From the NCBI GenBank assembly GCA_027459665.1, contig DAIDHN010000024.1, positions 1-58,664 on the forward strand: DNA of 58,664 bases, written 5' to 3'. Made by a program: the position numbers and the translations under genes. Each line of letters starts with the position of its first letter. Position 1 is the stretch's first letter. This document shows, in pieces, positions 3,473 to 58,664 of this stretch. Source of the stretch: Chthonomonadaceae bacterium. Its GTDB lineage: Bacteria > Armatimonadota > Chthonomonadetes > Chthonomonadales > Chthonomonadaceae. Under the pieces are notes generated by a model. The model had not been told where the DNA came from, did not search any database, and worked only from the letters and a program-made list of their open reading frames with translations.

Positions 3473-4843
3473 ATGTTGGTCTCGCTTTACAATACAGCCT
3501 CGCGCAGCAAACAGGAATTTGTTTCTCTGGAACCGGGCAAGGTACGTTTGTACTGCTGTGGGCCAACGGTGTACAATTACGCGCATATTGGCAATTTGCG
3601 CACCTATATTTTTGAAGACCTGCTGCGCCGCATACTCGAATTCAACGGGTATGAGGTGACTCATGTGATGAATGTTACCGATGTTGGCCATATGACTACC
3701 GATGAGGATGCGGGCGATGACAAGATGGAGGTTGCTGCCCGGCGCGAAAACCGGTCGCCCTGGGAGATAGCGCGTTTTTATGAGGAGGCGTTTTTTCATG
3801 ACACCGCCCGCCTCAACATTCTGCGCCCGCATATTACGCCGCGCGCCACAGAACATGTGAAAGAGATGATCGCGCTGATAGAAAAGCTGGAGAAGGGCGG
3901 CCTTACCTATCGCACTGCAGAGGGCATCTACTTTGATACAGCCCTTTTTGCCGACTATGGCAAAATGGCGCGCCTCAACCTTACCGGCCAGCGTACAGAA
4001 CGTGAAGAAGTGGTGGCGGATGACAGCAAGCGCAACCCTTCTGATTTTATGCTCTGGTTTCTCAACAAGCCTACTCACATTATGCAGTGGACCAGCCCAT
4101 GGGGGCCAGGCTACCCAGGGTGGCACATAGAGTGCTCGGCAATGTCTATGAAGTACCTCGAAGAGACTTTTGACATACACTGCGGCGGGGTAGACCACAT
4201 TCCGGTACACCACACAAACGAGATTGCGCAGAGCGAGGGGGCTACCAGCCGGCCGTTTGTGCGCTACTGGATGCACGGTGAGTTTTTGCTGATGGGCAAA
4301 GAAAAAATATCCAAGTCAAAGGGGGGCAGCATCAATACTCTGCAATCGCTGATAGATGCCGGTTTCGACCCCATGGCATATCGCTACTTCTGCCTGCAGG
4401 CGCACTATCGCACCGAACTCAATTTCTCGCAGGAGGCGCTTGCCGCTGCCACGGCCGGGCTGCGCAAAATATACTCGCTCTCTACGGAAAACGACTCGCT
4501 GGCACAAAATGAAGAGGGCTTTGCAGCAGCGAAAAGCAAGGTGCTGGCAGTGCTGAATGATGATTTGGGAGTGCCGCAGGCGGTAGGCATGCTCAATTTC
4601 TACAACAGCCTGCGGCTCTGGCTCGCATTTGATTCGGTACTGGGCTTGCAAATAGCCGAACATGTGCATCGTGAAGAAGAACCGATTCCGGCCCAGGTGC
4701 AGGCGCTGATTTCTGAGCGCAGCGCTGCCCGCGCAGCAAAACAGTGGGCAGAGGCAGACCGCCTGCGCGATCTGCTCATTAGCCAGGGGTATGAAGTGGC
4801 AGACGGGCCAGAGGGGGCTGCTGTACGCAAAAAGGTTATTTAA
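3473..4843 (+). CDS. cysS: Cysteinyl-tRNA synthetase
   Basis: This class I aminoacyl-tRNA synthetase charges tRNA-Cys. Class signatures are clear: HIGN at residues 38-41 (ATP site) and KISKS at 278-282. Zinc ligands are in place: Cys29, Cys221 in GWHIECSAM, His246 and Glu250 in HHTNE. At 456 residues it is full length. The C-terminal part (EADRLRDLLISQGYEVADGPEG) is the usual DALR/anticodon-binding end. It heads a run of + genes and is followed 18 bases later by the M24 peptidase. A TATAAT box lies just upstream. Confidence 0.98.
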   Translation: MLVSLYNTASRSKQEFVSLEPGKVRLYCCGPTVYNYAHIGNLRTYIFEDLLRRILEFNGYEVTHVMNVTDVGHMTTDEDAGDDKMEVAARRENRSPWEIARFYEEAFFHDTARLNILRPHITPRATEHVKEMIALIEKLEKGGLTYRTAEGIYFDTALFADYGKMARLNLTGQRTEREEVVADDSKRNPSDFMLWFLNKPTHIMQWTSPWGPGYPGWHIECSAMSMKYLEETFDIHCGGVDHIPVHHTNEIAQSEGATSRPFVRYWMHGEFLLMGKEKISKSKGGSINTLQSLIDAGFDPMAYRYFCLQAHYRTELNFSQEALAAATAGLRKIYSLSTENDSLAQNEEGFAAAKSKVLAVLNDDLGVPQAVGMLNFYNSLRLWLAFDSVLGLQIAEHVHREEEPIPAQVQALISERSAARAAKQWAEADRLRDLLISQGYEVADGPEGAAVRKKVI

Positions 4844-4861
4844 CCGACAGGAGAGCAGGCA

Positions 4862-5971
4862 GTGAACGATTTTCAATTGAGAGTAGAGCGTTTGCAGGCG
4901 CTTTTGCAAAAACGCAAAATAGCGCTCGCTATTCTTTCTTTTTCCGACCAGATGCGCTACTTGAGCGGATATGCCGAACATGGGCACGAACGTTTGCTTG
5001 CCCTGCTGGTGCCTGCAGAGGGCAAACCGGTTTTTTTGGTGCCTTCTCTTAGCGAGCAGGCGGCGCGCGGCAACCCTGCGCACATAAAACACATTGTTGC
5101 CTGGGAAGACCAGGATGGCTGGCAGATGGGGTTTACCAGCCTGCTGGCAGATATGAACGTACATCGAAGCGATACGCTGCTGATAGATGACGAGCTGCCC
5201 AGCGTACACCTTATGCAGATGCAGGCGCTGATGCCCGGCATAATCTGCCTGCCGGCCGGCGAACTGCTTTCCAGCTTGCGGCGGGTGAAATCGGAGGTGG
5301 AACTGGCGGCAATGCAGCAGGCTGCTTCTGCAATTGATTCGGTCGCCGATGAAGTGATAGGGTCGCTGAGGGCAGGTGTTACAGAAAAAGCAGTGCAGCG
5401 GTCTGTGCTGGATGCCTGTGCTGTAAGGGGAATGCCGCCGGCTTTTACGCCGCTGGTATGCTTTGGAGCCAATGGAGCCATGCCCCACCATGCCAGCGGC
5501 GAAACCTGCCTGCAAGCCGGTGATATGGTGATTTTAGACATAGGCTGCATGGCAGGCGGATACTGCTCTGATATTACACGCACCCTCTCGTTTGGAAAAC
5601 CAGCCGATGCAGACGCAGAAAAAGTGTACGATATCGTGCTGCAGGCGCACCATGCAGCACGCAGCGCAGCGCGGCCCGGAGTATCTTGCGAGGAGGTAGA
5701 TGCCGCTGCACGCGCCTGCATAGAGGCCAGGGGATACGGCAAACAGTTTCTGCACCGCACAGGCCACGGAATTGGCCTTTCATGCCATGAACCGCCCTAC
5801 ATTGTGAGAGGCAATGCCACCCTGCTTGAACCAGGATTCTGCTTTTCGGTTGAACCGGGCATCTATCTGCCCGAACGATTTGGCGTGCGCCTGGAGGTAA
5901 TTGCTGCCGTTACCGCAGCAGGAACGGTGTCGCTCAATGCAGACCCGCCTTCCAGCCTGCTCGTTGTGTAA
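4862..5971 (+). CDS. M24 family metallopeptidase (Xaa-Pro aminopeptidase/prolidase type)
   Basis: The protein (369 aa) has an N-terminal creatinase-like domain (about 1-130) and a C-terminal pita-bread M24 domain. Dinuclear metal ligands can be traced in LDIGCMAGGYCSDITRT (two Asp), HRTGHGIGLSCHEPP (His), SVEPGIY (Glu) and GVRLEV (Glu). This family removes N-terminal residues ahead of proline or cleaves Xaa-Pro dipeptides in the cytoplasm. It starts at GTG 4862 after a GGAGAG sequence, 18 bases after cysS, so it is probably in the same transcript. PepP versus PepQ specificity cannot be decided from the sequence. Confidence 0.9.
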   Translation: MNDFQLRVERLQALLQKRKIALAILSFSDQMRYLSGYAEHGHERLLALLVPAEGKPVFLVPSLSEQAARGNPAHIKHIVAWEDQDGWQMGFTSLLADMNVHRSDTLLIDDELPSVHLMQMQALMPGIICLPAGELLSSLRRVKSEVELAAMQQAASAIDSVADEVIGSLRAGVTEKAVQRSVLDACAVRGMPPAFTPLVCFGANGAMPHHASGETCLQAGDMVILDIGCMAGGYCSDITRTLSFGKPADADAEKVYDIVLQAHHAARSAARPGVSCEEVDAAARACIEARGYGKQFLHRTGHGIGLSCHEPPYIVRGNATLLEPGFCFSVEPGIYLPERFGVRLEVIAAVTAAGTVSLNADPPSSLLVV

Positions 5972-6082
5972 GACCCCCCGCACACTCCTGCAGGAGAGGA
6001 TGTAGGGTATATTAAAGTGCTGAAAACAAATCGCCGCCCTCATCACCAGCAGTATGAGCCGGCGCAAGGAGATAGACTCGTT

Positions 6083-6343
6083 ATGGCGTACGTAATTGCA
6101 GAGCCTTGTATTGGCGTAAAAGACAAGTCTTGCGTGACAGTCTGCCCGGTAGACTGCATTCACGAAGGTTCGATTTCTGAAGATGGCAAAGTGTACGATA
6201 TGCTTTTCATCAATCCAGATGAATGCATAGACTGCGGTCTGTGCGAACCTGAATGCCCGGTGACGGCAATATATGCCGACAGCGATGTGCCCAAACAGTG
6301 GGAATCGTACATTCAACTGAACGCTAATTTTTACCGCAAATAA
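6083..6343 (+). CDS. Seven-/eight-iron ferredoxin (FdxA type)
   Basis: This 86-residue electron carrier has two cluster motifs: C9-x7-C17-x3-C21-P with an extra Cys25, and the canonical C48-x2-C51-x2-C54-x3-C58-P. The first spacing is that of the 3Fe-4S or atypical 4Fe-4S site of 7Fe/8Fe ferredoxins, the second a standard 4Fe-4S site. ATG 6083 is preceded by AAGGAG at ideal spacing, and the protein then begins MAYVIAEPC as expected for the family. Upstream in-frame codons are not conserved-looking. A hairpin terminator follows directly. Confidence 0.93.
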   Translation: MAYVIAEPCIGVKDKSCVTVCPVDCIHEGSISEDGKVYDMLFINPDECIDCGLCEPECPVTAIYADSDVPKQWESYIQLNANFYRK

Positions 6344-6346
6344 CCT

Positions 6347-6370
6347 CGCCCACACCAGCGGGGCGGTTTT
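6347..6370 (+). terminator. Intrinsic terminator after the ferredoxin gene
   Basis: A CGCCC/GGGCG stem with a 9-base loop is followed by TTTT, starting 4 bases after the ferredoxin stop. Confidence 0.6.
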
Positions 6371-6403
6371 ATTGACTGCCCCGCACTTTTTCTACCCTGA
6401 GCC

Positions 6404-6997
6404 ATGTCATTAAAGATATACACTCGCACCGGAGACAACGGTCATACCGGCCTGTTTGGCGGGGTGCGCGTACCAAAATACGACCTGCGTGTAGAGGCAT
6501 ACGGGGCAGTAGATGAACTCAATGCTGCGCTGGGGCTGGCTGCTGTGCACCCTTGTCAGCCCGATATGCAGCAGCTGATTACCCGCCTGCAAAGTGAATT
6601 GTTTGAGCTGGGCGCAGACCTTGCCGCCCCAGGCCTGCATGCAGAAAAAAGAGGCAAAGCTTTTGTGAAGCGTATTCGCGCTGAACATGTACTGCATCTG
6701 GAAGAAGAGATAGACCGCTATGAGGCCGAGCTGGAGCCTCTGCGCTGCTTCATTTTACCCGGCGGGTCTGCTCTGGCTGCTGCCCTGCACTGGGCGCGCG
6801 TAGTGTGCCGGCGGGCTGAAAGGCAGACTGCGGCACTGCTGCATGCCCATGAGCAGCTGGCAGAACCCGATGTAAACCCTGAAAGCATGCGGTACCTGAA
6901 CAGGCTGGCAGACCTGCTGTTTGTGCTTGCACGCGCCGCCAATAAACGCCTGGAAGTTTTGGATATTCCATGGACTTCAGAACCGGCAGAAGAATAA
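6404..6997 (+). CDS. Cob(I)yrinic acid a,c-diamide adenosyltransferase (PduO/MMAB type)
   Basis: This enzyme transfers the adenosyl group of ATP to cob(I)alamin, making coenzyme B12. PduO-type signatures are present: YTRTGDNGHTGLFGG near the N-terminus (ATP binding), YGAVDELNAALG, FILPGGSALAAALHWARVVCRRAER, and PESMRYLNRLADLLFVLARAAN near the end. Length (197 aa) is normal. No other B12 genes lie nearby, which suggests salvage or a scattered pathway. The stop overlaps the next start (TAATG), so translation of the two is coupled. The combination with an exported LolA-like protein has no obvious functional meaning. Confidence 0.95.
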   Translation: MSLKIYTRTGDNGHTGLFGGVRVPKYDLRVEAYGAVDELNAALGLAAVHPCQPDMQQLITRLQSELFELGADLAAPGLHAEKRGKAFVKRIRAEHVLHLEEEIDRYEAELEPLRCFILPGGSALAAALHWARVVCRRAERQTAALLHAHEQLAEPDVNPESMRYLNRLADLLFVLARAANKRLEVLDIPWTSEPAEE

Positions 6998-7983
6998 TGA
7001 AGCTTTCTCACAGCCTCACCCCCGCCCTGATCTGTTGTGCCCTTGCCGCCCCGGTTTTACCAGGCTGGGCGCAAAATCGTTCAACCGCACATGCGCTTCG
7101 TCTGCTGCATGAAATGGCCGATGCCTACAGGCAGCTGAACACGCTAGACCTTACCACGCGCACTTACGCCATAGAGCTTCCACAGCCTTCAAAAACCACT
7201 CCGCTGCCTGCGCTGATTACCTCACAGCTGCAGGGCAAAGCTACCGGCAGGGAATTGAGGCTGAAGGTGGAAAGACCCAATAAGCTGGTGTTCGCGGTGC
7301 GAAACAAAGACGATGGAGACGCCTCGATGTGGGTGTGCGACGGCCGCCGCCTCTGGTCGTATCTGCCCAACACCACCATAGGCAGCGCGCACGGCAATTT
7401 TTATACCCGCTCACATGCTCCGGCAAACCTGTCGGAACTGGCACGCATGAAAGATATGCCGCCCGGCTCGCTCGAACTGATGATGATGGAAGGGCTTGAC
7501 CCGTTTGCCCGGCTGGCTGCAATGGTGCAAAGCATTCGCTATGAGGGTGAAAAAACAATAGCAGGCGTTGTAACCAGTATTGTAGAACTGCACTCGCAGG
7601 CAAACGGCCAGTCGGTGCGCATTGCTTTTTGTATCGGCAAAACAGACCACCTGCTTTACCGAATGATCGTTCAGGAACGGCAGCTTCCTGCTGCTGCAAA
7701 CCCGGCGCTGGTAGGAGACCGCTTTGATGCGCTAGTGGAAAACAGCAGCCCGCATGCGAATAAAACCCCTGCTGTTCCCAGACCGGTGATGCGCATTACA
7801 CTCGACAACCGTATTCGGCAGCCGCAGTATTTTGGCTCAGATACCTTTTTCTTTGTAATACCCAAAAATGCGCAGAGGTACACGCCCATCAATGGCTCGC
7901 ATGTGCTTACTTTAGGTTCTGCCGGAATTCCCAATTCTGCAGGGCATCTGTACAACTTTCCTTTCTTGAAACACCGCCGCTGA
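6997..7983 (+). CDS. Exported LolA-like / DUF2092-like protein
   Basis: The 328-residue product opens with a Sec signal peptide (MKLSHSLTPALICCALAAPVL..., likely cleaved after GWAQ). The mature part has the LolA/LppX-like pattern: an N-terminal helix with LLHEMADAYRQLNTLDLTTR, a strand LRLKVERPNKLVFAV, and MWVCDGRRLWSYLPNT, which resembles the D-G-x-x-x-W-x-Y-x-P block of the DUF2092/outer-membrane-lipoprotein-carrier-like families. A role in lipid or lipoprotein handling in the periplasm is possible but inferred. The start overlaps the stop of the adenosyltransferase by one base; nadK follows after 19 bases. Confidence 0.7.
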   Translation: MKLSHSLTPALICCALAAPVLPGWAQNRSTAHALRLLHEMADAYRQLNTLDLTTRTYAIELPQPSKTTPLPALITSQLQGKATGRELRLKVERPNKLVFAVRNKDDGDASMWVCDGRRLWSYLPNTTIGSAHGNFYTRSHAPANLSELARMKDMPPGSLELMMMEGLDPFARLAAMVQSIRYEGEKTIAGVVTSIVELHSQANGQSVRIAFCIGKTDHLLYRMIVQERQLPAAANPALVGDRFDALVENSSPHANKTPAVPRPVMRITLDNRIRQPQYFGSDTFFFVIPKNAQRYTPINGSHVLTLGSAGIPNSAGHLYNFPFLKHRR

Positions 7984-8002
7984 GGCAAAGGCAGCATATT
8001 TT

Positions 8003-8884
8003 ATGGCCAGAACGATTGGTATGGTGGTGCATCGCAGCAACCCTCAGGCATGGGAACAGGCGCACCTGGTAATAGACTGGCTGCATAGCCAGGGCATAGA
8101 AGTATGGCTGGATGAGGCTTCTGCCCGGCGCCTGCACTGTGTAGAGCTTTCGATGCCCGAAGCAGGATGGGGCGGCACAGAGTTTATTGTTTCGCTGGGG
8201 GGAGACGGAACCATACTTTCGGCAGCGCGTATGGCGGCCCCGGCCGGCGTGCCCATTTTAGGGGTGCATCTGGGCCGGTTTGGCTTTATTGCCGAAGCTC
8301 ACCCTGTGGGGCTGCTTGCGCATTTGCAGCGCGCCTTGCAGGGGCATGTGCGCCTGGAAGAACGGCTGATGCTGCATACCGAGATTTTGCGGCATGGCGA
8401 GCGTATCTACGCAGGCATAGGTCTGAACGATGCCGTGGTGAAAAGCGCTTCCTCCAGCCTGCTTCATCTGCATCTGGTGCTGGCGGGCGGTTCTTTTGCT
8501 ACCTACCCTGCAGATGGGGTAATTATTGCCACCCCTACAGGTTCTACCGGCTACTCGCTTTCTGCGGGCGGCCCCATTGTAGAGCCGACGGTGCAGGCGC
8601 TGGTCATAACTCCCATTTGCCCGCATACTCTCAGCGCCCGCCCCATGGTGGTTCCGTGTACGCACAGTGTGGAAGTGCATCTGGAGGAGGAAGAAGAAGA
8701 GGCGCTGTTTAAGATGGATGGGCAGGAGGCAGTGACCATTCGGTGGGAAGACCGTGTAATGATACGCCGGTCTGAATACATTACCCGCCTCATGGCGCCA
8801 GAAATCAGTTCGTTTTACCGCAAGGTGCGGGGGCGATACCTTTATGGCGAGAGACAAAATGCCCCTGAAGCCAGCGGCCCGTAA
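8003..8884 (+). CDS. nadK: NAD kinase
   Basis: NadK phosphorylates NAD to NADP. The protein (293 aa) has the catalytic GGDGT motif at residues 66-70 followed by a Gly/Arg-rich loop, the NDAVV block, and the diagnostic PADGVIIATPTGSTGYSLSAGGPIV signature, then PICPHTLSARPMVVP. Length and order are normal. It continues the + operon after the LolA-like gene. Confidence 0.97.
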   Translation: MARTIGMVVHRSNPQAWEQAHLVIDWLHSQGIEVWLDEASARRLHCVELSMPEAGWGGTEFIVSLGGDGTILSAARMAAPAGVPILGVHLGRFGFIAEAHPVGLLAHLQRALQGHVRLEERLMLHTEILRHGERIYAGIGLNDAVVKSASSSLLHLHLVLAGGSFATYPADGVIIATPTGSTGYSLSAGGPIVEPTVQALVITPICPHTLSARPMVVPCTHSVEVHLEEEEEEALFKMDGQEAVTIRWEDRVMIRRSEYITRLMAPEISSFYRKVRGRYLYGERQNAPEASGP

Positions 8885-8988
8885 ATTTCACCCTCTATTC
8901 TTTTTGATGAGCAGTGTATAATTGATATAAGAATGCAGTATCAAAGTTGCACGCAAAATGGGCGTGCATGTGTGAAGGAGCTGGTCTA

Positions 8989-9774
8989 ATGACTAATATG
9001 CAGCGCGGGGCCGGGCAGTACTTCAATTCCTCCCGCAGCCCGGGCACACTGGGAATTATTGCAGCAAATGTCGCAGCGTTTTTTATAGGCGCTTTTTCTG
9101 CCAAACTCCTGAGCTACTTTGTGTTTGCTCCTGCTTTCTGGTTGACTCGGCCCTGGACGCTTGTTACCTGGTCGCTGGTTACGCATGACCCCATCAGCCT
9201 GCTGTTTTCAGCGCTATGGGCAATGTGGTGCTGCAGCAGCCTGGAAAGAAGCTGGGGCACAAAACAATTTCTTGGCTTTTATTTTGCAGTGAATATCATC
9301 ACCGCTCTTACCGTATGGGTAGGCGCTTCGCTGCTGAATGCGCACTTTCTTTTGCTCTCTGGTTTGTGGGCCGGGCTGGCAGCGCCAACCATAGCGTGGT
9401 GTACCATCAACCGCCGCGAATCTATCTCCTTTTTTGGCATAGTGCCAGTTTCCGCCCCTCTGCTGGCAGCAATAACGCTGGTGCTGCTTTGGTATTCGGT
9501 TGGGCCGCCTGTGCTGGGGCTGTTTGCGCTTTCGGGCTGCGCTGCCGCCTGGTGGTATGCATCGCGAGGCAGATATGCCTTTCAGGGGTATGCACCTGTG
9601 CAAAAGCACAAACCCAAACTGCGGCTGCACGATGTAGAACTGGAACCAATGGGGCCAAAAGGTCTGGCCCCCATGCAGCGCTACAAGGCATGGCAGGAAC
9701 GCCGTAAACTGAAAGCTCTGCTCAAACGCTCTTTCACCAAAAATGACCCCGAAGAAAGAAGCAACAAACGCTAG
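8989..9774 (+). CDS. Rhomboid-like membrane protein, probably not an active protease
   Basis: This 261-residue protein has about six hydrophobic segments. The segment RPWTLVTWSLVTHDPISLLFSALWAMWCCSSLERSWGTKQFLGFYF has the layout of the rhomboid L1 loop and TM2 (R-x-x-T-x-x-x-x-H...LE...G). The GxSG motif is changed to LLSGLWAGL (Ser124 kept, first Gly lost). The final helix, where the catalytic His should stand, reads LGLFALSGCAAAWWYA without a His. It is therefore best read as a rhomboid-superfamily pseudoprotease. A basic cytoplasmic tail (KAWQERRKLKALLKRS) closes it. ATG 8989 follows GAAGGAG. A symmetrical hairpin lies after the gene. Confidence 0.7.
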   Translation: MTNMQRGAGQYFNSSRSPGTLGIIAANVAAFFIGAFSAKLLSYFVFAPAFWLTRPWTLVTWSLVTHDPISLLFSALWAMWCCSSLERSWGTKQFLGFYFAVNIITALTVWVGASLLNAHFLLLSGLWAGLAAPTIAWCTINRRESISFFGIVPVSAPLLAAITLVLLWYSVGPPVLGLFALSGCAAAWWYASRGRYAFQGYAPVQKHKPKLRLHDVELEPMGPKGLAPMQRYKAWQERRKLKALLKRSFTKNDPEERSNKR

Positions 9775-9784
9775 CACAGGCCGC

Positions 9785-9804
9785 CTGCCGCCTTAAGGCG
9801 GCAG
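9785..9804. terminator. Hairpin between convergent genes
   Basis: A perfect 8-bp stem, CTGCCGCC-TTAA-GGCGGCAG, lies between the rhomboid-like gene (+) and the large exported protein (-). It could stop transcription from either side, although the following T-tract is weak. Confidence 0.5.
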
Positions 9805-9848
9805 CACCTGTTCTTTATTTGCCACACAAGTCAGCATGTTCTGCCGGT

Positions 9849-12800
9849 TTAGTGCGTCTCCAGCGTAATTGCCGCAATGCGCACTTGAGGCGCATTGGGC
9901 AAACGGATGGCAATCAGCTTGTGCATGCTGCTCACAGGTATGGTGATGGCATAAAGCGCCCTTGCACCCGGCACCGTGTTGTGCTGAACGGTGTGAACAG
10001 GCGAGAAAAAGCCAATCTGACCGGGATGCAGCGCCGGGTTACTCCAACTGGGCACTGCAATGGCGTACAGATTTGCCGAGACGCCGTTGGCTTCCTGAAA
10101 TTTCAGCTCCAGGCGGCAGGTGGTTCCCTCTGCAGCAGATGCAAGCAGCAGGTGTACCGATTTGTAGGTTCCTGCCTGTTTTCCCAAATCAATGAGCTGC
10201 CCGCGGCAGGCTATAAACTGGCTTGCTGCCTGGTTTTGCGGCAGCCAGCGGAATGAAATATGCCGGGGAGAGGTGATGCCCTTGCCGCCGTTTGCCTGCC
10301 AGAGACCAGAGGGTACGGTATCGGTGAGCGCGTAGGGAGGCAGCATGCTGGCCGGGAAGTTTTCACCTTTGCCGTCAAACCCGGCCTCCGCTTCCACGCG
10401 GTGCGCCCGTTTTTTGGAGGGCAGCGTGCGCAGCTGGCTCATGTCTACAAAATGCAGTTTTCCATTGATTACCCGAATTGGCAGCACCAGGGTTTCATTC
10501 GGGCTGGCGGCGCCGCGAGTGCTTGCCCATGTATCGCCCACCTTCACATCCCACACCAGGTAGTACAGCCCATTATAAGGCGGCACATTTACCCATGCCA
10601 GCAGGTTTGAGGCAGAAGCGCCCGGAGCAATGTTGGCGGTGAGGGGTGTGATTTCATCGTTGAATACTACTTCGGTGCCATCCATGTAATACCAGTGATA
10701 GCCCAGCGCCACGGCTTCTTTTTTCCAGGTTTGCACCCCTCTGTTTTTCAGGCTGAGCAAAACAGGCATGCGCTTGCCTGCAGGAAGCTGTGCAGGGGTG
10801 AGGCTGCCTGTGAAATCTACGCCAAAATCGTAGCGCCTTACTGCAATAGGCGCAAGCGGTATAGATACCCCCCGGTTGTGAGGTGTGGCAATTTCTACCT
10901 GTACCATGTCGGCGCCATAGTTTGCCAGCGGCAGCGGCGCTCCATCTGGACGGGTAAGCGGCAGCGGCACATCGACCGATACAACAGCGCCGGGCGCTGC
11001 AGATGTTTTGAGCAGCACAGTAGCATCTGCCGACTGTACAGGCTGCAGGCTGTTTTCCTCGCCGCGCGAATAGAGCCGCAAGGTAATTCTATAGCCAGGC
11101 TTCCAGCTAAAAGAGCCATCGTTGCGCAGCACAAGACGAACCATATATTCGCTGGCGGTTTCCAGTTCAGAATGCATGCTGCTGTATATCACCCTTGCCT
11201 GCATAAAAGCAGGGGAGGCTGCAGGCAGAATGGTTACTGGCAGCAGAAGGCTGTTTCCGGGGCTGTTTTCGCCCAGAAACGGGTTGCTGGAAGCCGCGGA
11301 CTGCAGGGTGGCCAGCCCGATTTGCAAGGTGTAGTCTCCGGGAGGCAGTGGTTTGCCGTCTGTGCCCAGCGCGGCAACCGGAAAACCGGCTTCGGTGTTG
11401 TGCAGGGGCATTACGCTGCTTATGAGCGGGGTAGGCGGGCTGTAGCCAACTACCCTGCCATTGCGCAGCCAGCGCACCGCCCATGCCACTGGCAGAGAAG
11501 GCGTTTCACTGCCCCAGGCCTGCGTACCTGTGTTTCGCGCCAGCACATGAATGGTGCATATTTCTCCTGCCTGCATTTGCAAAGGGGCATCGCTCCAAAG
11601 CATCTGCGCCGACTGCTGCGACAGCCCCAGCAGCCGCCGTTCCATTTCCACGGTAATATCGGCTGTGGCGTAGCCCTGTTCCAGCGAGGGGGCTATTTCA
11701 GAAGCGGTAGAAAACTGGTTCCAGCCATTCAGCAGCACCCAGGGAGCCTGGGTTTGCAGCGCCTGTTCCCAGTGCGCACGATAGGCAGCGCCCTCAAGCC
11801 GGGGCTGGTACTTGCTGAGAGCATTGGGGTGTGCGATTACAGGGTCGTACCCTGGCGAAATAGAGACCAGCTTCATCCAGCCGCCTGTGAGGCTGGTTAG
11901 CCCTCCAGAGGCTCCTGCCGGCGTGAACCGTCCGTCGAGTTTCGAGGTGAAATCGGGGGTGCCCAGCAGCAGCAGGTCGGTTTTATGAAACCGCGCAGCA
12001 AATCTGGCGCGCAGATAGTCTGGCCAGCCCGGCTGGTTTTTCAGTGCTTCTCCCCCTTGCAAAAAGAGCGGGCAGGCCATGCCTCCGCCATTGTTTGCGC
12101 TGAGCGGAACGGCCAGCCTGTCTGCAGGAGGCAGCGAGCTGTAAAAAACTGCTACAGCCTGCCAGAGACGCTGCGGGGTAAGAGAGCCTGCCGGCAGGTT
12201 TTTCAGATTGAGCATCAATCCAATTTGAGGCGCGGGCAGGTTGTTTTGCGCAGCGTACTGCAGCGCCCGGGCCAGTGCAGAAAGTGCGCCGGCAGGCTGC
12301 AGGCCGTGTGCGGTAAGTTGAAATTCGGGCAGCAGCGCCTCTATTCCTGCCAGCGAAGCATTGGTAAGCTGTGACAGCTGCCAGTTGGCACTGCGATACG
12401 AAAGCCAGGGGCCGGTTCCGTTGTAAGGGTGGTGCGCCAAAGCAGAGGCTCCGCTTTGCAGCGTCACATTTTGCGTGGGTGCATTGAGGCGGGGATTGCC
12501 CTGAAAGCCCTCGTTCAGAATGGCCAGAGTGAGCGGCGGAAGCGGCTGGGGCGCATGCGGCGCCGGTGCAGGCAGCACGGCGGCTGGCAGGGCAATAACA
12601 GGTCGCGGCGGTTCTGAGGCAAAAGGCGCTCTTATGCGCGCAATATCTGTTCTGGTGGCGTTTAGGCCGGTAAGTTCGGAGATGCTTACGCCAAACTGCA
12701 GAGATGTCTGCTCTGGCCACTCTCCCTGGCTGATGCGACCGTCTATAACAGGCGAGGTTTTTTCGGTATGCAGGCATACCGCCATTGCCGCAGAGCCTTT

Positions 12801-55707: not shown

Positions 55708-55824
55708 ATGAAGTTCCTGAGGCACAGCGGTGAGCGAAATTCGTTTTTCGCACACAGTTTAGGTATACATTTGTCCTCCCCTCACGGTTTTCCCGCTCCA
55801 TGCGAGTTGCGGCATGGGCAGTAA
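55708..55824 (+). CDS. Short leader ORF overlapping the start of the C39 gene
   Basis: ATG 55708 stands 7 bases after a strong GGAGG and opens a 38-codon frame (MKFLRHSGERNSFFAHSLG... ending HGQ). It overlaps the C39 peptidase start (ATG 55800, no ribosome binding site of its own) by 25 bases in another frame. It may be a leader peptide that couples translation to the C39 gene. Alternatively a single-base indel could have separated the real start from the export signal. The peptide resembles nothing I know. Confidence 0.45.
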   Translation: MKFLRHSGERNSFFAHSLGIHLSSPHGFPAPCELRHGQ

Positions 55825-56927
55825 TATTTCTGTTTCTCTGGAATTTTAGTCTTTTCCCCATGGCTTATGCAATGGGCCACCCCGTCAAAAAACCGCTGCA
55901 GAACCCGTCTGCCGTAAAACCCATCGTTGCCCGTCCGCATCCATCCTGGCATACAGTAAATTACTATGCTCCCCAGAAAGCTGTGCCTCGGTACCTTTCA
56001 GCTTCTGTGCAGCGAGCTTACCGCGACTGGCCGTTTCCGCTGGTAGATGCCACCGGTCATTTCACCCATTCACTGCATGCAGGCACTGTGCAGCAATGGA
56101 AGCAGAAGCTGCATGAGGGCGGCCTTTCGGGGCATATGCAGGCACGGCTGCATCTTTTGCTGGGTGAGCAGCTTATCGGAGCAAAGTACCCGGAGGCAGC
56201 CAACTGGCATTTTAGGGCAGTAGAGCGCATCATGCCCCATACATCCCCGTTTTATGGCCGTGCGGCATTTGACCTGGCGCTCGCCAGGTACCGAAGCGGA
56301 GAGTATGGCGCTGCGGCACGTGCCTGGCAGCGTCTTCTGAAACCGGGAACGCACCTGTGCGGCTTCGACTTTAGAAATGCCGCTCTTATGGAACGGCATG
56401 CACAGACCTGCTCCGGGTATCATCACGCGCACCGGCGGCTTGGCATTCCTGAACCCTCATCGCTCGACCCGCTCTGCGGGGCAGCTGCTCTGGCTGTGTG
56501 CCTGCGCTCTCTGCACGAAAAGTATGCCCGCAGCTACGTAGCCTGCCGCGTGCCGCACACCGGGGAAGGCAGCACTCTGGCTGACCTGAAAAAGGGGGCG
56601 CGCACTTTTGGGCTTGTGCCGGCAGAATTCTCGCTGCAATCTCTCAAAAACGTGCGAAGCCTGCCTCTTCCCTGCATAGCTTTTGTAGAGCACGATCATT
56701 TTGTTGCGGTTACAAATGTGAATGCACAAGGAGTTGCCTATATTTGCAGCGACTGTGACCACGTTCGGCCCTGGCGGCCCACTGGCCCGCACGAGCGGCG
56801 GCCGCACGCTGCTCTACACGCCGGATGCGAGCGGCAACGTGAGCCAGCAACTGGATGCGGCAACTGGTGCGGCGGTTGCCAGCTACGCCTTCGATGCGTG
56901 GGGCGGCCGTTCGGCAGTCACCAGTGA
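55800..56927 (+). CDS. Exported C39-family cysteine peptidase domain protein, truncated by an RHS junction
   Basis: The frame has a signal peptide (AAWAVIFLFLWNFSLFPMAYA), a TPR-like helical part (about 100-182), and a C39 peptidase-like domain: SSLDPLCGAAALAVCL with catalytic Cys226, STLADLKKGARTFGL, and PCIAFVEHDHFVAVTNV with His300, then YICSDCD with the third residue. C39 domains cleave leader peptides or toxin precursors. Recognisable sequence stops near residue 319 (base 56757). From there the frame reads antisensically through RHS core DNA that codes in another frame, so the last 55 residues are not native. The whole looks like the 5' part of a C39-RHS gene whose middle was deleted. 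Confidence 0.75.
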   Translation: MRVAAWAVIFLFLWNFSLFPMAYAMGHPVKKPLQNPSAVKPIVARPHPSWHTVNYYAPQKAVPRYLSASVQRAYRDWPFPLVDATGHFTHSLHAGTVQQWKQKLHEGGLSGHMQARLHLLLGEQLIGAKYPEAANWHFRAVERIMPHTSPFYGRAAFDLALARYRSGEYGAAARAWQRLLKPGTHLCGFDFRNAALMERHAQTCSGYHHAHRRLGIPEPSSLDPLCGAAALAVCLRSLHEKYARSYVACRVPHTGEGSTLADLKKGARTFGLVPAEFSLQSLKNVRSLPLPCIAFVEHDHFVAVTNVNAQGVAYICSDCDHVRPWRPTGPHERRPHAALHAGCERQREPATGCGNWCGGCQLRLRCVGRPFGSHQ

Positions 56928-57594
56928 CCCGACAGCAGCGCTCGACCCGTATGCGGGGTACGGCGGCATGCACGGGTACTACATCGACCCTGAGACAGGG
57001 CTGCAGTTGTGCGGCCTGCGTTACTACGACAGCGGGGCTGGCAGGTGGCTGAACCGCGACCCCATTTCGTACACGGGGGGCATGAACCTCTACGGCTACT
57101 GCGGCAACGGGGCGCTGGGAGCCAGCGACGCAAGCGGGTTAATTCCTAAGCCTCCAAGTCAAGGTGTTGGTATGAGCTGTGGCATCAAGGCATTGCTTTC
57201 GCTTATTGGTTCAAGTGGAGGGTTTCATAATGGGTTCGACTGGAATGCACTATGTGCTGCTATCTGTAGCGTAATAATGAACTGTGGTGCGGGAGCGATG
57301 TGCACTGCACTGGGAAACCTCTCCGACTTGGGCGGGTTGTGGACTGGCTGCTTTGTTGGGGCAGTATGCTCGGTTTCGGCAAATATTCTCACAGATTTTT
57401 GCACCCTGTTCACAGATTGCCCCGGACATGAAAACGTGCCGAAAATGTTATGTAACATGCTGTCGTCGGCAATTTCCGGGTGTATAAGCGGTGGTGTGCC
57501 AGATTTCGGCAGCATATTGGGGCGAGTGGCATCTGGAGTTGGTTCATTGATATGTAATTACTTGTCGGGTGGCAATGGTACGTGGTTATTTTGA
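56722..57594 (+). pseudogene. RHS core fragment with variable Cys/Gly-rich C-terminal tail (displaced or silent Rhs tip)
   Basis: The frame opens at ATG 56722 inside the C39 gene, but RHS homology begins near 56750: TTFGPGGPLARTSGG, LLYTPDASGNVSQQLD, YAFDAWG, PYAGYGGMHGYYIDPETGLQLCGLRYYDSGAGRWLNRDPISYTGG, and MNLYGYCGNGALGASDASG, the conserved RHS repeat-associated core ending. A 151-residue variable tail follows (57142-57591) with 12 cysteines, many glycines and several hydrophobic stretches. This is the position of the toxin in Rhs proteins. The stop overlaps the next ATG (TGATG). The fragment lacks its own ribosome binding site and the thousand-plus residues of RHS repeats expected upstream. 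Confidence 0.75.
56822..56898 (+). repeat. 77-bp exact direct repeat within the RHS core, copy 1
   Basis: These 77 bases are identical to 58588-58664. The second copy runs off the window end, so the true repeat is probably longer. They code for DASGNVSQQLDAATGAAVAS and the residues after it in the RHS core. Confidence 0.97.
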
Positions 57595-58577
57595 TGGATA
57601 CACATTCATCTTCGAAACCGATACAGGATGGAGTGCTTTCACAGTCAAACAAAGAAACCGCGCACCTGGAACTTCGAAAATTTTGCAGTGAACTTACTGA
57701 GGCAAACCGTGGCGGCATAGAAATCACATCAATTGCGCGCTATATTCGAATTATTAAGTGTGCGATGGTTGCCCTGATGCTATTCTCATATTTGAGCGTT
57801 TTTTGGGTACTTACCCATTTAGAGGGAGAAATTGAAGAGGTTCTGTGTTCCCTGCTTATAATTAATTTCATCTTGTGTTTGAATGTATTAGCGTCAAGAG
57901 CAGCAAATAACATAAAACAGCAAGGTGCCTTTGAGAATGAACTATGTACGTTTGAAGCTGTTATCAACAAGGATAGAAATTTTTTAAATTCTATCGACTT
58001 TGAATTGGTCAGCAGTGCTGACCGCGCGATGGCAACAGAAACATTCGTTGCCTATGCGTTGCGTAGTCTCTCCGTATGCCGGGTTGAAAAGAGTATAGCA
58101 TTTCCAGTAACCGAGCGGAGAGTGACTCGCTATGGTGCAGAGTTTCTAGGTGTGTTTGAACCTGACCTTACTATTTTAAGGGCACTGGGTGATTTGCTGC
58201 GCATAGGAATTTTAACGAATTCATTGCTCTGTAGTACAGCCAAAATAGAGTCAATCGTACATGATCTTTGGATTCTCAGAACGAAGACCGGAAATGAACG
58301 CAGAGAGAGAAAAACCATGCCGGATGGTGACTACGAGAAAATTCAGACACAATTTGTGCGGTACCTTGGCTGCTACGGTAGTGCCCGTTCGGTAGGCGTA
58401 CTGCACACCCTGGCTCGTGATAAACGGTACCCGGCGCTGCAGGGTGAGGCTAAACAGGCAATTGAACAGGTAAAATCTCGCATGGCTGGAGCTAATGGCG
58501 AGCTTCTTCATATTCCCTCACCTGCTCAGGATAATGACCTGTTGCACAGCACAGATGACTACCGTAGATTAAAGTAG
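57594..58577 (+). CDS. Membrane protein coupled to the Rhs tip, candidate immunity protein
   Basis: The product (327 aa) has a soluble N-terminus, two adjacent membrane helices (CAMVALMLFSYLSVFWVL and VLCSLLIINFILCLNVLA), a central domain of unknown type, and a C-terminal helical stretch (FVRYLGCYGSARSVGVLHTLARDKRYPALQGEAKQAIEQVK) with the look of HEAT-like repeats. Its ATG shares one base with the stop of the RHS tail (TGATG), the arrangement expected for an immunity gene behind an Rhs toxin. Base composition is more AT-rich than in the rest of the window, also typical of exchangeable cassettes. I do not recognise the family; the immunity role is inferred from position only. Confidence 0.6.
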   Translation: MDTHSSSKPIQDGVLSQSNKETAHLELRKFCSELTEANRGGIEITSIARYIRIIKCAMVALMLFSYLSVFWVLTHLEGEIEEVLCSLLIINFILCLNVLASRAANNIKQQGAFENELCTFEAVINKDRNFLNSIDFELVSSADRAMATETFVAYALRSLSVCRVEKSIAFPVTERRVTRYGAEFLGVFEPDLTILRALGDLLRIGILTNSLLCSTAKIESIVHDLWILRTKTGNERRERKTMPDGDYEKIQTQFVRYLGCYGSARSVGVLHTLARDKRYPALQGEAKQAIEQVKSRMAGANGELLHIPSPAQDNDLLHSTDDYRRLK

Positions 58578-58587
58578 GCATGTCAAG

Positions 58588-58664
58588 CGGATGCGAGCGG
58601 CAACGTGAGCCAGCAACTGGATGCGGCAACTGGTGCGGCGGTTGCCAGCTACGCCTTCGATGCG
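58588..58664 (+). pseudogene. Start of a second, orphan RHS core copy (runs off the window)
   Basis: The 77 bases before the window edge repeat 56822-56898 exactly. In the RHS frame the only codons between the preceding in-frame TAG (58575-58577, the stop of the membrane protein) and the repeat are four without ATG, GTG or TTG. This copy therefore cannot be translated on its own and is a silent tip cassette. Confidence 0.85.

What the first reader, a model, noticed from the sequence alone, without database searches (positions are those of the whole stretch)
56722..58664. Orphan Rhs tip cassette array with tandem core repeats
The sequence shows an RHS repeat-associated core, a variable tail, a coupled membrane protein gene, and then a second RHS core start identical to the first over at least 77 bases. 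In known Rhs/polymorphic toxin systems, tandem silent core-toxin-immunity cassettes allow the active toxin tip to be swapped by recombination between core repeats. Finding this layout attached to a C39-peptidase gene in what is probably an Armatimonadota-type genome would widen the known range of tip switching.
Basis: partly seen in the sequence, partly recalled or inferred. Interest (0 to 1): 0.85.

Follow-up and report, generated by a model that had tools for sequence, protein, structure and literature searches.

The report
Orphan Rhs toxin-tip array, beheaded here
The end of this contig opens a real tandem array of spare tips, each with a partner gene, for a large bacterial competition toxin (Rhs); the array type is known from other bacteria, but here it serves a toxin whose gene start in several relatives carries a run of G or C bases that could switch it on and off.

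Summary
The 77-bp terminal match is only the assembler's overlap: contig C24 (the window) ends where a 317-bp exact repeat begins, and contig C33 starts at that repeat's last 77 bases. C33 carries unit 2, two more units and remnants; contig C66 carries two more. At the last core base (GCAAGCGGG|) identity between units falls from 93-100% to chance. Cores are 94-97% identical within the genome but about 78% to another genus, while tails and partner genes recur as matched types across genera; tail types orphaned here follow long Rhs frames elsewhere. This is C-terminal displacement as known in enterobacteria, in a new phylum (probably Armatimonadota). The functional reading needs correcting. The C39 gene is not an accessory gene: in relatives it is the N-terminal head of the Rhs protein, and here it has lost the RHS barrel and is out of frame with the core. 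Every Rhs head assembled in this genome is broken, so the array is probably a silent archive. Newer: poly-G/C tracts of 8-12 separate start or signal peptide from the body in seven heads of five genomes, six out of frame, which suggests phase variation of Rhs.

The parts
55708..55799 (+). Old 5' end of the C39-Rhs head: ATG at 55708 (MKFLRHSGER...) in another frame than the C39 ORF; at the place of the C-tract of relatives only CCTCCCCTC (about 55775-55783) is left
   Evidence: three-frame reading compared with G014:C153 (C11) and G011:C26 (no tract)
55800..56754 (+). Truncated head of a C39-Rhs protein: signal peptide, helical linker, C39 peptidase domain cut off at YICSDC
   Evidence: Peptidase_C39 PF03412 E=6e-10, profile 13-100 of 133; heads of relatives 38-57% identical; in G004, G001 and G017 the same head continues into Rhs in one ORF
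56750..56760 (+). Deletion or fusion joint between C39 head and core, out of frame, with short microhomology GTGAC
56755..57138 (+). RHS-associated core of unit 1, 68.8% GC
   Evidence: TIGR03696; 93% identical to C33:3722-4105; GC
56822..57138 (+). 317-bp exact repeat shared by units 1 and 2; assembly-graph repeat that links C24 to C33
   Evidence: contig-end 77-mers, bases on both sides differ
57139..57594 (+). Variable tail type t1: 151 aa, Cys-rich, hydrophobic, helical tendency; putative membrane-active toxin tip
   Evidence: 75% identical to G014 tail, 65% to G011 tail; no Pfam or NCBIfam match outside the core; single-sequence model only pLDDT 43
57582..58577 (+). Putative immunity gene of t1 (likely start ATG 57594), 2 TM segments, C-terminal helical region, 44% GC
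   Evidence: homologues sit behind t1 tails in G014 and G011, and one in G001 lies behind a broken core
58588..58664 (+). First 77 bases of the exact core repeat of unit 2 (its tail and partner gene are C33:78-569 and C33:581-1699)
   Evidence: exact copy of 56822-56898

Best explanation
The window ends in a string of displaced Rhs C-terminal cassettes. Each cassette is a 3' piece of an rhs gene (conserved core up to the DASG cleavage-type motif), a variable tip and the tip's immunity gene. Shown: at least four such units plus remnants lie in C24-C33 and two in C66, cores are homogenised within the genome, tips and partner genes travel as matched pairs, and tip types orphaned here follow long Rhs frames in other genera. 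Inferred: cores recombine (gene conversion, unequal crossing over or insertion), so a new tip can be joined to a head and the old one shunted downstream; the pairs here are membrane-active toxins with membrane immunity proteins; the orphan partner genes may still protect against siblings. In this genome the head at the array (signal peptide plus C39 peptidase domain) has lost its RHS barrel by deletion and is out of frame, so the tips are probably silent. In relatives, heads are exported by signal peptide and often carry a G/C tract between start or signal peptide and body, which would let slippage turn the toxin on and off.
For: Other units and contig-end logic. Sharp identity drop at the core end and ragged upstream ends. 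Core identity 94-97% within the genome versus 78% mean, 80% maximum, to G011 and G014, even for units with the same tail type. Tail and partner linkage: 5 of 10 tail-homologous cross-genome pairs have homologous partners against 2 of 1346 other pairs, Fisher p=1.4e-10. t1 then t2 order also in G014:C560. t5 is the attached tip of a 1815-aa Rhs in G004 and of a long Rhs frame in G001, and t1 follows a 1297-codon Rhs frame in G014, but all are orphans here. Arrays of 2-11 units in other families of the phylum, one with a DUF4329 tail next to Imm-NTF2-2, another with a Tlde1-type tail. C39 and RHS_repeat in one ORF. No VipB/TssC in the genome. GC mosaic core 69, tail 48, partner 44%.
Against: No activity or immunity was tested. 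The tails and partner proteins of this genome match no known toxin or immunity family. The t5 pairs, and two other tail-homologous pairs, show no partner match. C24-C33 adjacency is inferred from k-mers, not reads. An intact head could hide in an assembly gap. The deletion joint could be an assembly error, though no long repeat sits there.
Confidence: 0.85

Rival explanations
1. A live tip-switching locus: the array feeds an intact, expressed Rhs gene in this genome and tips are swapped often.
For: Units 1 and 2 share 317 identical bp, which fits a recent exchange. C1 (Rhs 5' part) and C66 (core plus tip) end in assembly gaps that may join.
Against: The C24 head lacks the barrel, C1 has G12 and two further frameshifts, C81 lost most of the barrel; RHS_repeat hits other than C1 are single fragments.
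Confidence: 0.2
2. Plain genomic debris: ordinary tandem duplication and decay of one Rhs 3' end, with no selection for diversity.
For: Several units are remnants: C33:1770, C33:10110, and C66:1996 with a tail-to-partner deletion.
Against: Tails of neighbouring units are at chance DNA identity while their cores are 93-100% identical; the same tails occur in other genera with their partner genes and open frames.
Confidence: 0.08
3. Assembly artefact: the second core start is a false duplication.
For: The repeat sits at the contig end and is exactly 77 bp, an assembler overlap length.
Against: C33 starts with the matching end of the same repeat and carries a different tail; G014 shows t1 then t2 in one contig.
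Confidence: 0.03
4. The tails are not toxins but structural or adhesive ends of secreted YD/Rhs proteins, and the partner proteins are membrane anchors or receptors.
For: The own-genome tails are one loosely related Cys-rich hydrophobic family without known toxin domain.
Against: The same core type carries a DUF4329 tail with Imm-NTF2-2, a Tlde1-type tail and a nucleotidyltransferase-like tail in relatives; matched-pair linkage is what immunity predicts.
Confidence: 0.15

Closest known systems
Rhs C-terminal displacement arrays of enterobacteria (Jackson et al. 2009, PMC2935791)
   Same: Core fragments of variable 5' length with unrelated tips, in strings downstream; near-identical cores in a genome; distinct GC signatures of core and tip
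   Different: Other phylum; head with C39 peptidase domain and signal peptide; no T6SS (VipB) found; array head is broken here
Salmonella Typhimurium LT2 rhs-main / rhs-CT-orphan with rhsI genes (PMC3967940)
   Same: Orphan tip plus immunity gene with a core stretch (522 bp, 95% identical there; 317 bp, 100% here) able to recombine
   Different: There an intact main gene and experimental activation; here no intact main gene and no experiment
Neisseria MafB silent cassettes (PMC4287609) and Ornithobacterium hominis arrays with 26 orphan Rhs tips (PMC13183296)
   Same: Many silent CT-immunity cassettes behind one toxin gene
   Different: MafB is not Rhs; the O. hominis paper mentions a putative phase variation mechanism for FSD adhesins, not for Rhs

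Membership tests
Rhs polymorphic toxin orphan-tip array | RHS-associated core domain (TIGR03696) at the 5' side of each unit | tested here: met
   57.9, 58.3 and 53.2 bits against cut-off 32.5 in C24, C33 and C66; C33:8485 and the remnants hold only the core's end
Rhs polymorphic toxin orphan-tip array | Abrupt change from conserved core to variable tip at the DPxGL-type site | tested here: met
   93-100% to about 25% identity at GASDASG; the motif here is DASG plus M, L, T or I, not canonical DPxGL
Rhs polymorphic toxin orphan-tip array | Cognate immunity gene directly downstream of each tip | tested here: met
   Linkage by sequence, p=1.4e-10; protection itself not tested
Rhs polymorphic toxin orphan-tip array | Full-length rhs gene upstream of the orphans | tested here: not met
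   Only a barrel-less C39 head in C24; met in relatives G033 and G017
Rhs polymorphic toxin orphan-tip array | Tip is toxic to bacteria | not testable with these tools
   needs expression in a laboratory strain
T6SS-delivered Rhs effector | T6SS sheath gene in the genome | tested here: not met
   no VipB match in the own genome, control positive in E. coli
Phase-variable (contingency) gene | Long homopolymer inside the 5' coding region that sets the frame | tested here: met
   For Rhs heads other than the window's: G12 and G10 in own C1 and C81, C11 G014, C9 and C8 G004, C10 G001, G11 G017; expected 0.016 of 12 heads for tracts of 9 or more. The window's own head has no such tract.
Phase-variable (contingency) gene | Tract length varies among cells of one strain | not testable with these tools
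   no reads or sister isolates; only paralogues differ (G12 and G10 in otherwise 94% identical C1 and C81 pieces)

The most novel reading that the evidence does not exclude
In one order of this phylum, secreted C39-Rhs and Tat-Rhs toxins are under two switches: slippage of a G/C tract between signal peptide (or start) and body decides whether the toxin is made, and recombination between core repeats decides which tip it carries. G001:C75 (1698 codons) and G017:C63 (1828 codons) have open bodies out of frame with their own signal peptides by one slip at C10 and G11.
Probability: 0.5. Interest if true: 0.75.

Novelty: new variant of a known kind. Interest (0 to 1): 0.5.

Why it matters
It carries Rhs tip displacement, known from Proteobacteria and Bacteroidota, to a little-studied phylum, where arrays of 2-11 units are common and supply many unnamed toxin and immunity pairs. 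It identifies a C39-peptidase head as the export end of these Rhs proteins and offers a directly testable on/off switch for a costly weapon. It also shows that an array can outlive its head, which bears on whether orphan tips are kept for switching or for immunity.

Tried and rejected
AlphaFold models of tail t1 and its partner from single sequences had mean pLDDT 43 and 41, so no fold search was made. PADLOC gave nothing useful. Synteny of the window's flanking genes with the G011 and G014 head contigs: none. Naming the phylum through glnA in L132's genome failed, 35% identity, probably another paralogue. The idea that all long G tracts of this genome are contingency loci was dropped: the crude test passes 8 of 13 tracts but also 66% of random positions. 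The C9 tract near the C28 Rhs remnant lies in a rearranged stretch and was not counted. Taking the 77 bp as the recombining repeat was rejected.

Full report
WHAT WAS CLAIMED AND WHAT IS THERE. The window is the complete contig C24 of a 3.67-Mb, 118-contig genome (99.86% complete, 0.04% contaminated). At its end lie, on the + strand, a C39-peptidase ORF (55800), an RHS-associated core (56755-57138), a variable tail (57139-57594), a partner ORF (57582-58577, likely start ATG 57594, overlapping the tail's stop as TGATG) and 77 bases that repeat 56822-56898 exactly. The core is a curated-threshold hit of TIGR03696.

THE 77 BP AND WHAT FOLLOWS. Three contigs of this genome end in exactly 77 bases shared with another place: C24's last 77 = C24:56822-56898, C33's first 77 = C24:57062-57138, C66's first 77 = C33:3899-3975. 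That is what a de Bruijn assembly with k=77 leaves at unresolved repeats. The bases just outside 56822-57138 differ between copies, so the exact repeat is 317 bp. It has two entries (the C39 side, and 58587 on C24) and two exits (tail t1 on C24, tail t2 on C33). Because the second entry lies downstream of the first exit on the same contig, the only single path is C39 side - repeat - t1 - partner 1 - repeat - C33. An independent check: G014:C560 has t1 and then t2 on one contig. The joined sequence was not built; the argument needs coordinates only. Copy number of unit 1 is not fixed by this argument.

THE ARRAY. C33 carries: tail t2 (78-569) with a 372-aa TM partner (581-1699); a core remnant (1770-1817); unit t4 (core 3722-4105, tail to 4465, 490-aa partner 4515-5987); unit t5 (8419-9042, partners 9059-9370 and 9379-10113); a core fragment (10110-10216); then ordinary genes (LacI regulator, glycosidase). 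C66 carries unit t6 (1-675, partner 687-1889) and a second unit with a deletion between tail and partner (1957-2529), then glnA. AbiEi/AbiEii and an HTH/M78-peptidase gene with a small neighbour sit on the opposite strand between units.

EVIDENCE OF RECOMBINATION. In 30-bp bins anchored at the last core base the DNA identity of unit pairs is 93-100% up to GCAAGCGGG and mostly 10-50% directly after it; the only pair that stays alike is t2 and its C66 relic. Upstream ends are ragged. Within the genome full cores are 94-97% identical; to G011 and G014 (another genus of the family) they are 78% on average and 80% at most, also where the tail type is the same (73-80%). Tails run the other way: t1 is 75% identical in G014 and 65% in G011, t2 60% in G014, t4 75% over 65 aa in G011, t5 33% in G001 and G004, and types barely match one another. 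Partner genes follow the tails: 5 of 10 tail-homologous pairs between genomes have homologous partners against 2 of 1346 other pairs. t5, an orphan here, is the attached tip of a 1815-aa Rhs ORF in G004 and of a long Rhs frame in G001; t1 follows a 1297-codon Rhs frame in G014, with one frame change in the core. GC is 69% in the core, 48% in the tail and 44% in the partner gene, against 55.6% for the window.

HOW GENERAL. 39 of 61 related genomes match the core-tail profile. Among fetched loci, G032:C42 has about ten to eleven cores in 12 kb, G017:C89 and G047:C52 six each; G033:C21, G033:C5 and G017:C63 have a full-length Rhs followed by one or two orphans. Tails there include DUF4329 next to an Imm-NTF2-2 immunity protein, a Tlde1-type domain (30.0 bits, cut-off 30.1) and a nucleotidyltransferase-like domain. 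That supports the toxin-immunity reading for the family; for the Cys-rich hydrophobic tails of the own genome with multi-TM partners, membrane action is inference from composition only.

THE C39 GENE. The window ORF 55800-56754 is 38-57% identical to heads in G011, G014, G004, G001 and G017. In G001 (1698 aa), G004 (1815 aa) and G017 (1828 aa) the C39 domain and RHS region lie in one ORF; in G001 and G004 the C39 domain continues as CSDCGPWPGG...W.QW and then into DPVNL(A/S)TGEEEYGP, and Pfam finds C39 and RHS_repeat together in G004 and G017. In the window the ORF is cut at CSDC and runs out of frame into the core. So this is an Rhs head with barrel and C39 end deleted, with about 5 bp of microhomology at the joint. 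C39-type heads occur in 18 of 291 genomes of the phylum. The other own heads are broken too: the Tat-signal Rhs at the start of C1 has G12 behind the start codon and two more frame changes (near C1:1925 and C1:985), and its paralogue on C81 (G10, in frame) has lost most of the barrel. C1's Rhs 5' part and C66's core plus tip are the two unpaired ends; they may be one gene across a gap. No VipB/TssC was found, so export would be by Sec or Tat signal.

THE G/C TRACTS. Behind start codon or signal peptide lie: own C1 G12 (out of frame; 10 or 13 would be in frame), own C81 G10 (in frame), G014:C153 C11, G004:C266 C9 and C8 (two heads; the C9 head also has a TGA further on), G001:C75 C10 and G017:C63 G11, these last all out of frame by one slip; G011, the window head, G014:C307, G005 and heads of other families have none, and G004:C65 is interrupted and in frame. 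Tracts of 9 or more number about 5-20 per genome, so about 0.016 of 12 heads would carry one within 400 bp by chance; six do (p about 2e-14). In G001 and G017 a clear signal peptide stands before the tract and about 1700-1800 open codons after it. The plain reading is slipped-strand phase variation; homopolymer miscounts in the assemblies would change the stated phase but not the tracts. In other heads a start codon after the tract could still serve, so the effect may not be all-or-none. Four library searches found no paper on homopolymer-switched Rhs or on Rhs in Armatimonadota; subscription papers are not in that library.

COMPARISON. Jackson et al. 2009 (PMC2935791) describe strings of dissociated core-tip fragments with variable core length and propose displacement by recombination; PMC3967940 shows such a switch in Salmonella; MafB cassettes (PMC4287609) and O. 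hominis arrays (PMC13183296) are parallel cases. The present array is the same kind of thing. Differences: phylum, C39 head, no T6SS, broken head and the candidate phase switch. Two verdicts: by sequence features it is, and would work like, an Rhs orphan-tip array; as a live switching system it fails one test here (no intact main gene assembled).

TAXON. The best named match to the core-tail profile is an uncultured Armatimonadetes MAG (50% identity); genomes of the search collection are unnamed, so the phylum remains probable, not proven.

Noticed in passing
L034 (C1):2232-2243 and L121 (C81):69-78: Paralogous Tat-signal Rhs starts with G12 (out of frame) and G10 (in frame) directly behind MSEQDRNHDANH; the pieces are otherwise 94% identical.
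   Followed up: yes
L038 (C33):1906-3422 and 6288-7996, minus strand: AbiEi/AbiEii toxin-antitoxin genes and an HTH plus M78-peptidase gene with a small neighbour, both lodged between Rhs cassettes on the opposite strand.
   Followed up: partly
L035 (C28:40000-49370):6630-7550, minus strand: Another Rhs remnant (core plus a tail that begins a Hint-like domain, PF05203 below cut-off), with a C9 tract upstream in a rearranged stretch.
   Followed up: partly
C16:28161, C27:29095 and C20:6901, C79:1712 (L078, L082, L080, L087): Two pairs of paralogous loci where a G10-G11 tract lies just behind a possible start and before a signal-peptide-like stretch in another frame; may be further phase-variable secreted proteins.
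   Followed up: partly
L097 (G032:C42:36000-55000):3772-15942, minus strand: About ten to eleven Rhs cores in 12 kb with different tails and partners, one pair DUF4329 / Imm-NTF2-2: the largest array seen, in another family of the phylum.
   Followed up: partly
G011:C21:10604-10627 and G011:C46:36400-36417: G tracts of 24 and 18 bases in a related genome, unusually long for bacteria; context not examined.
   Followed up: no
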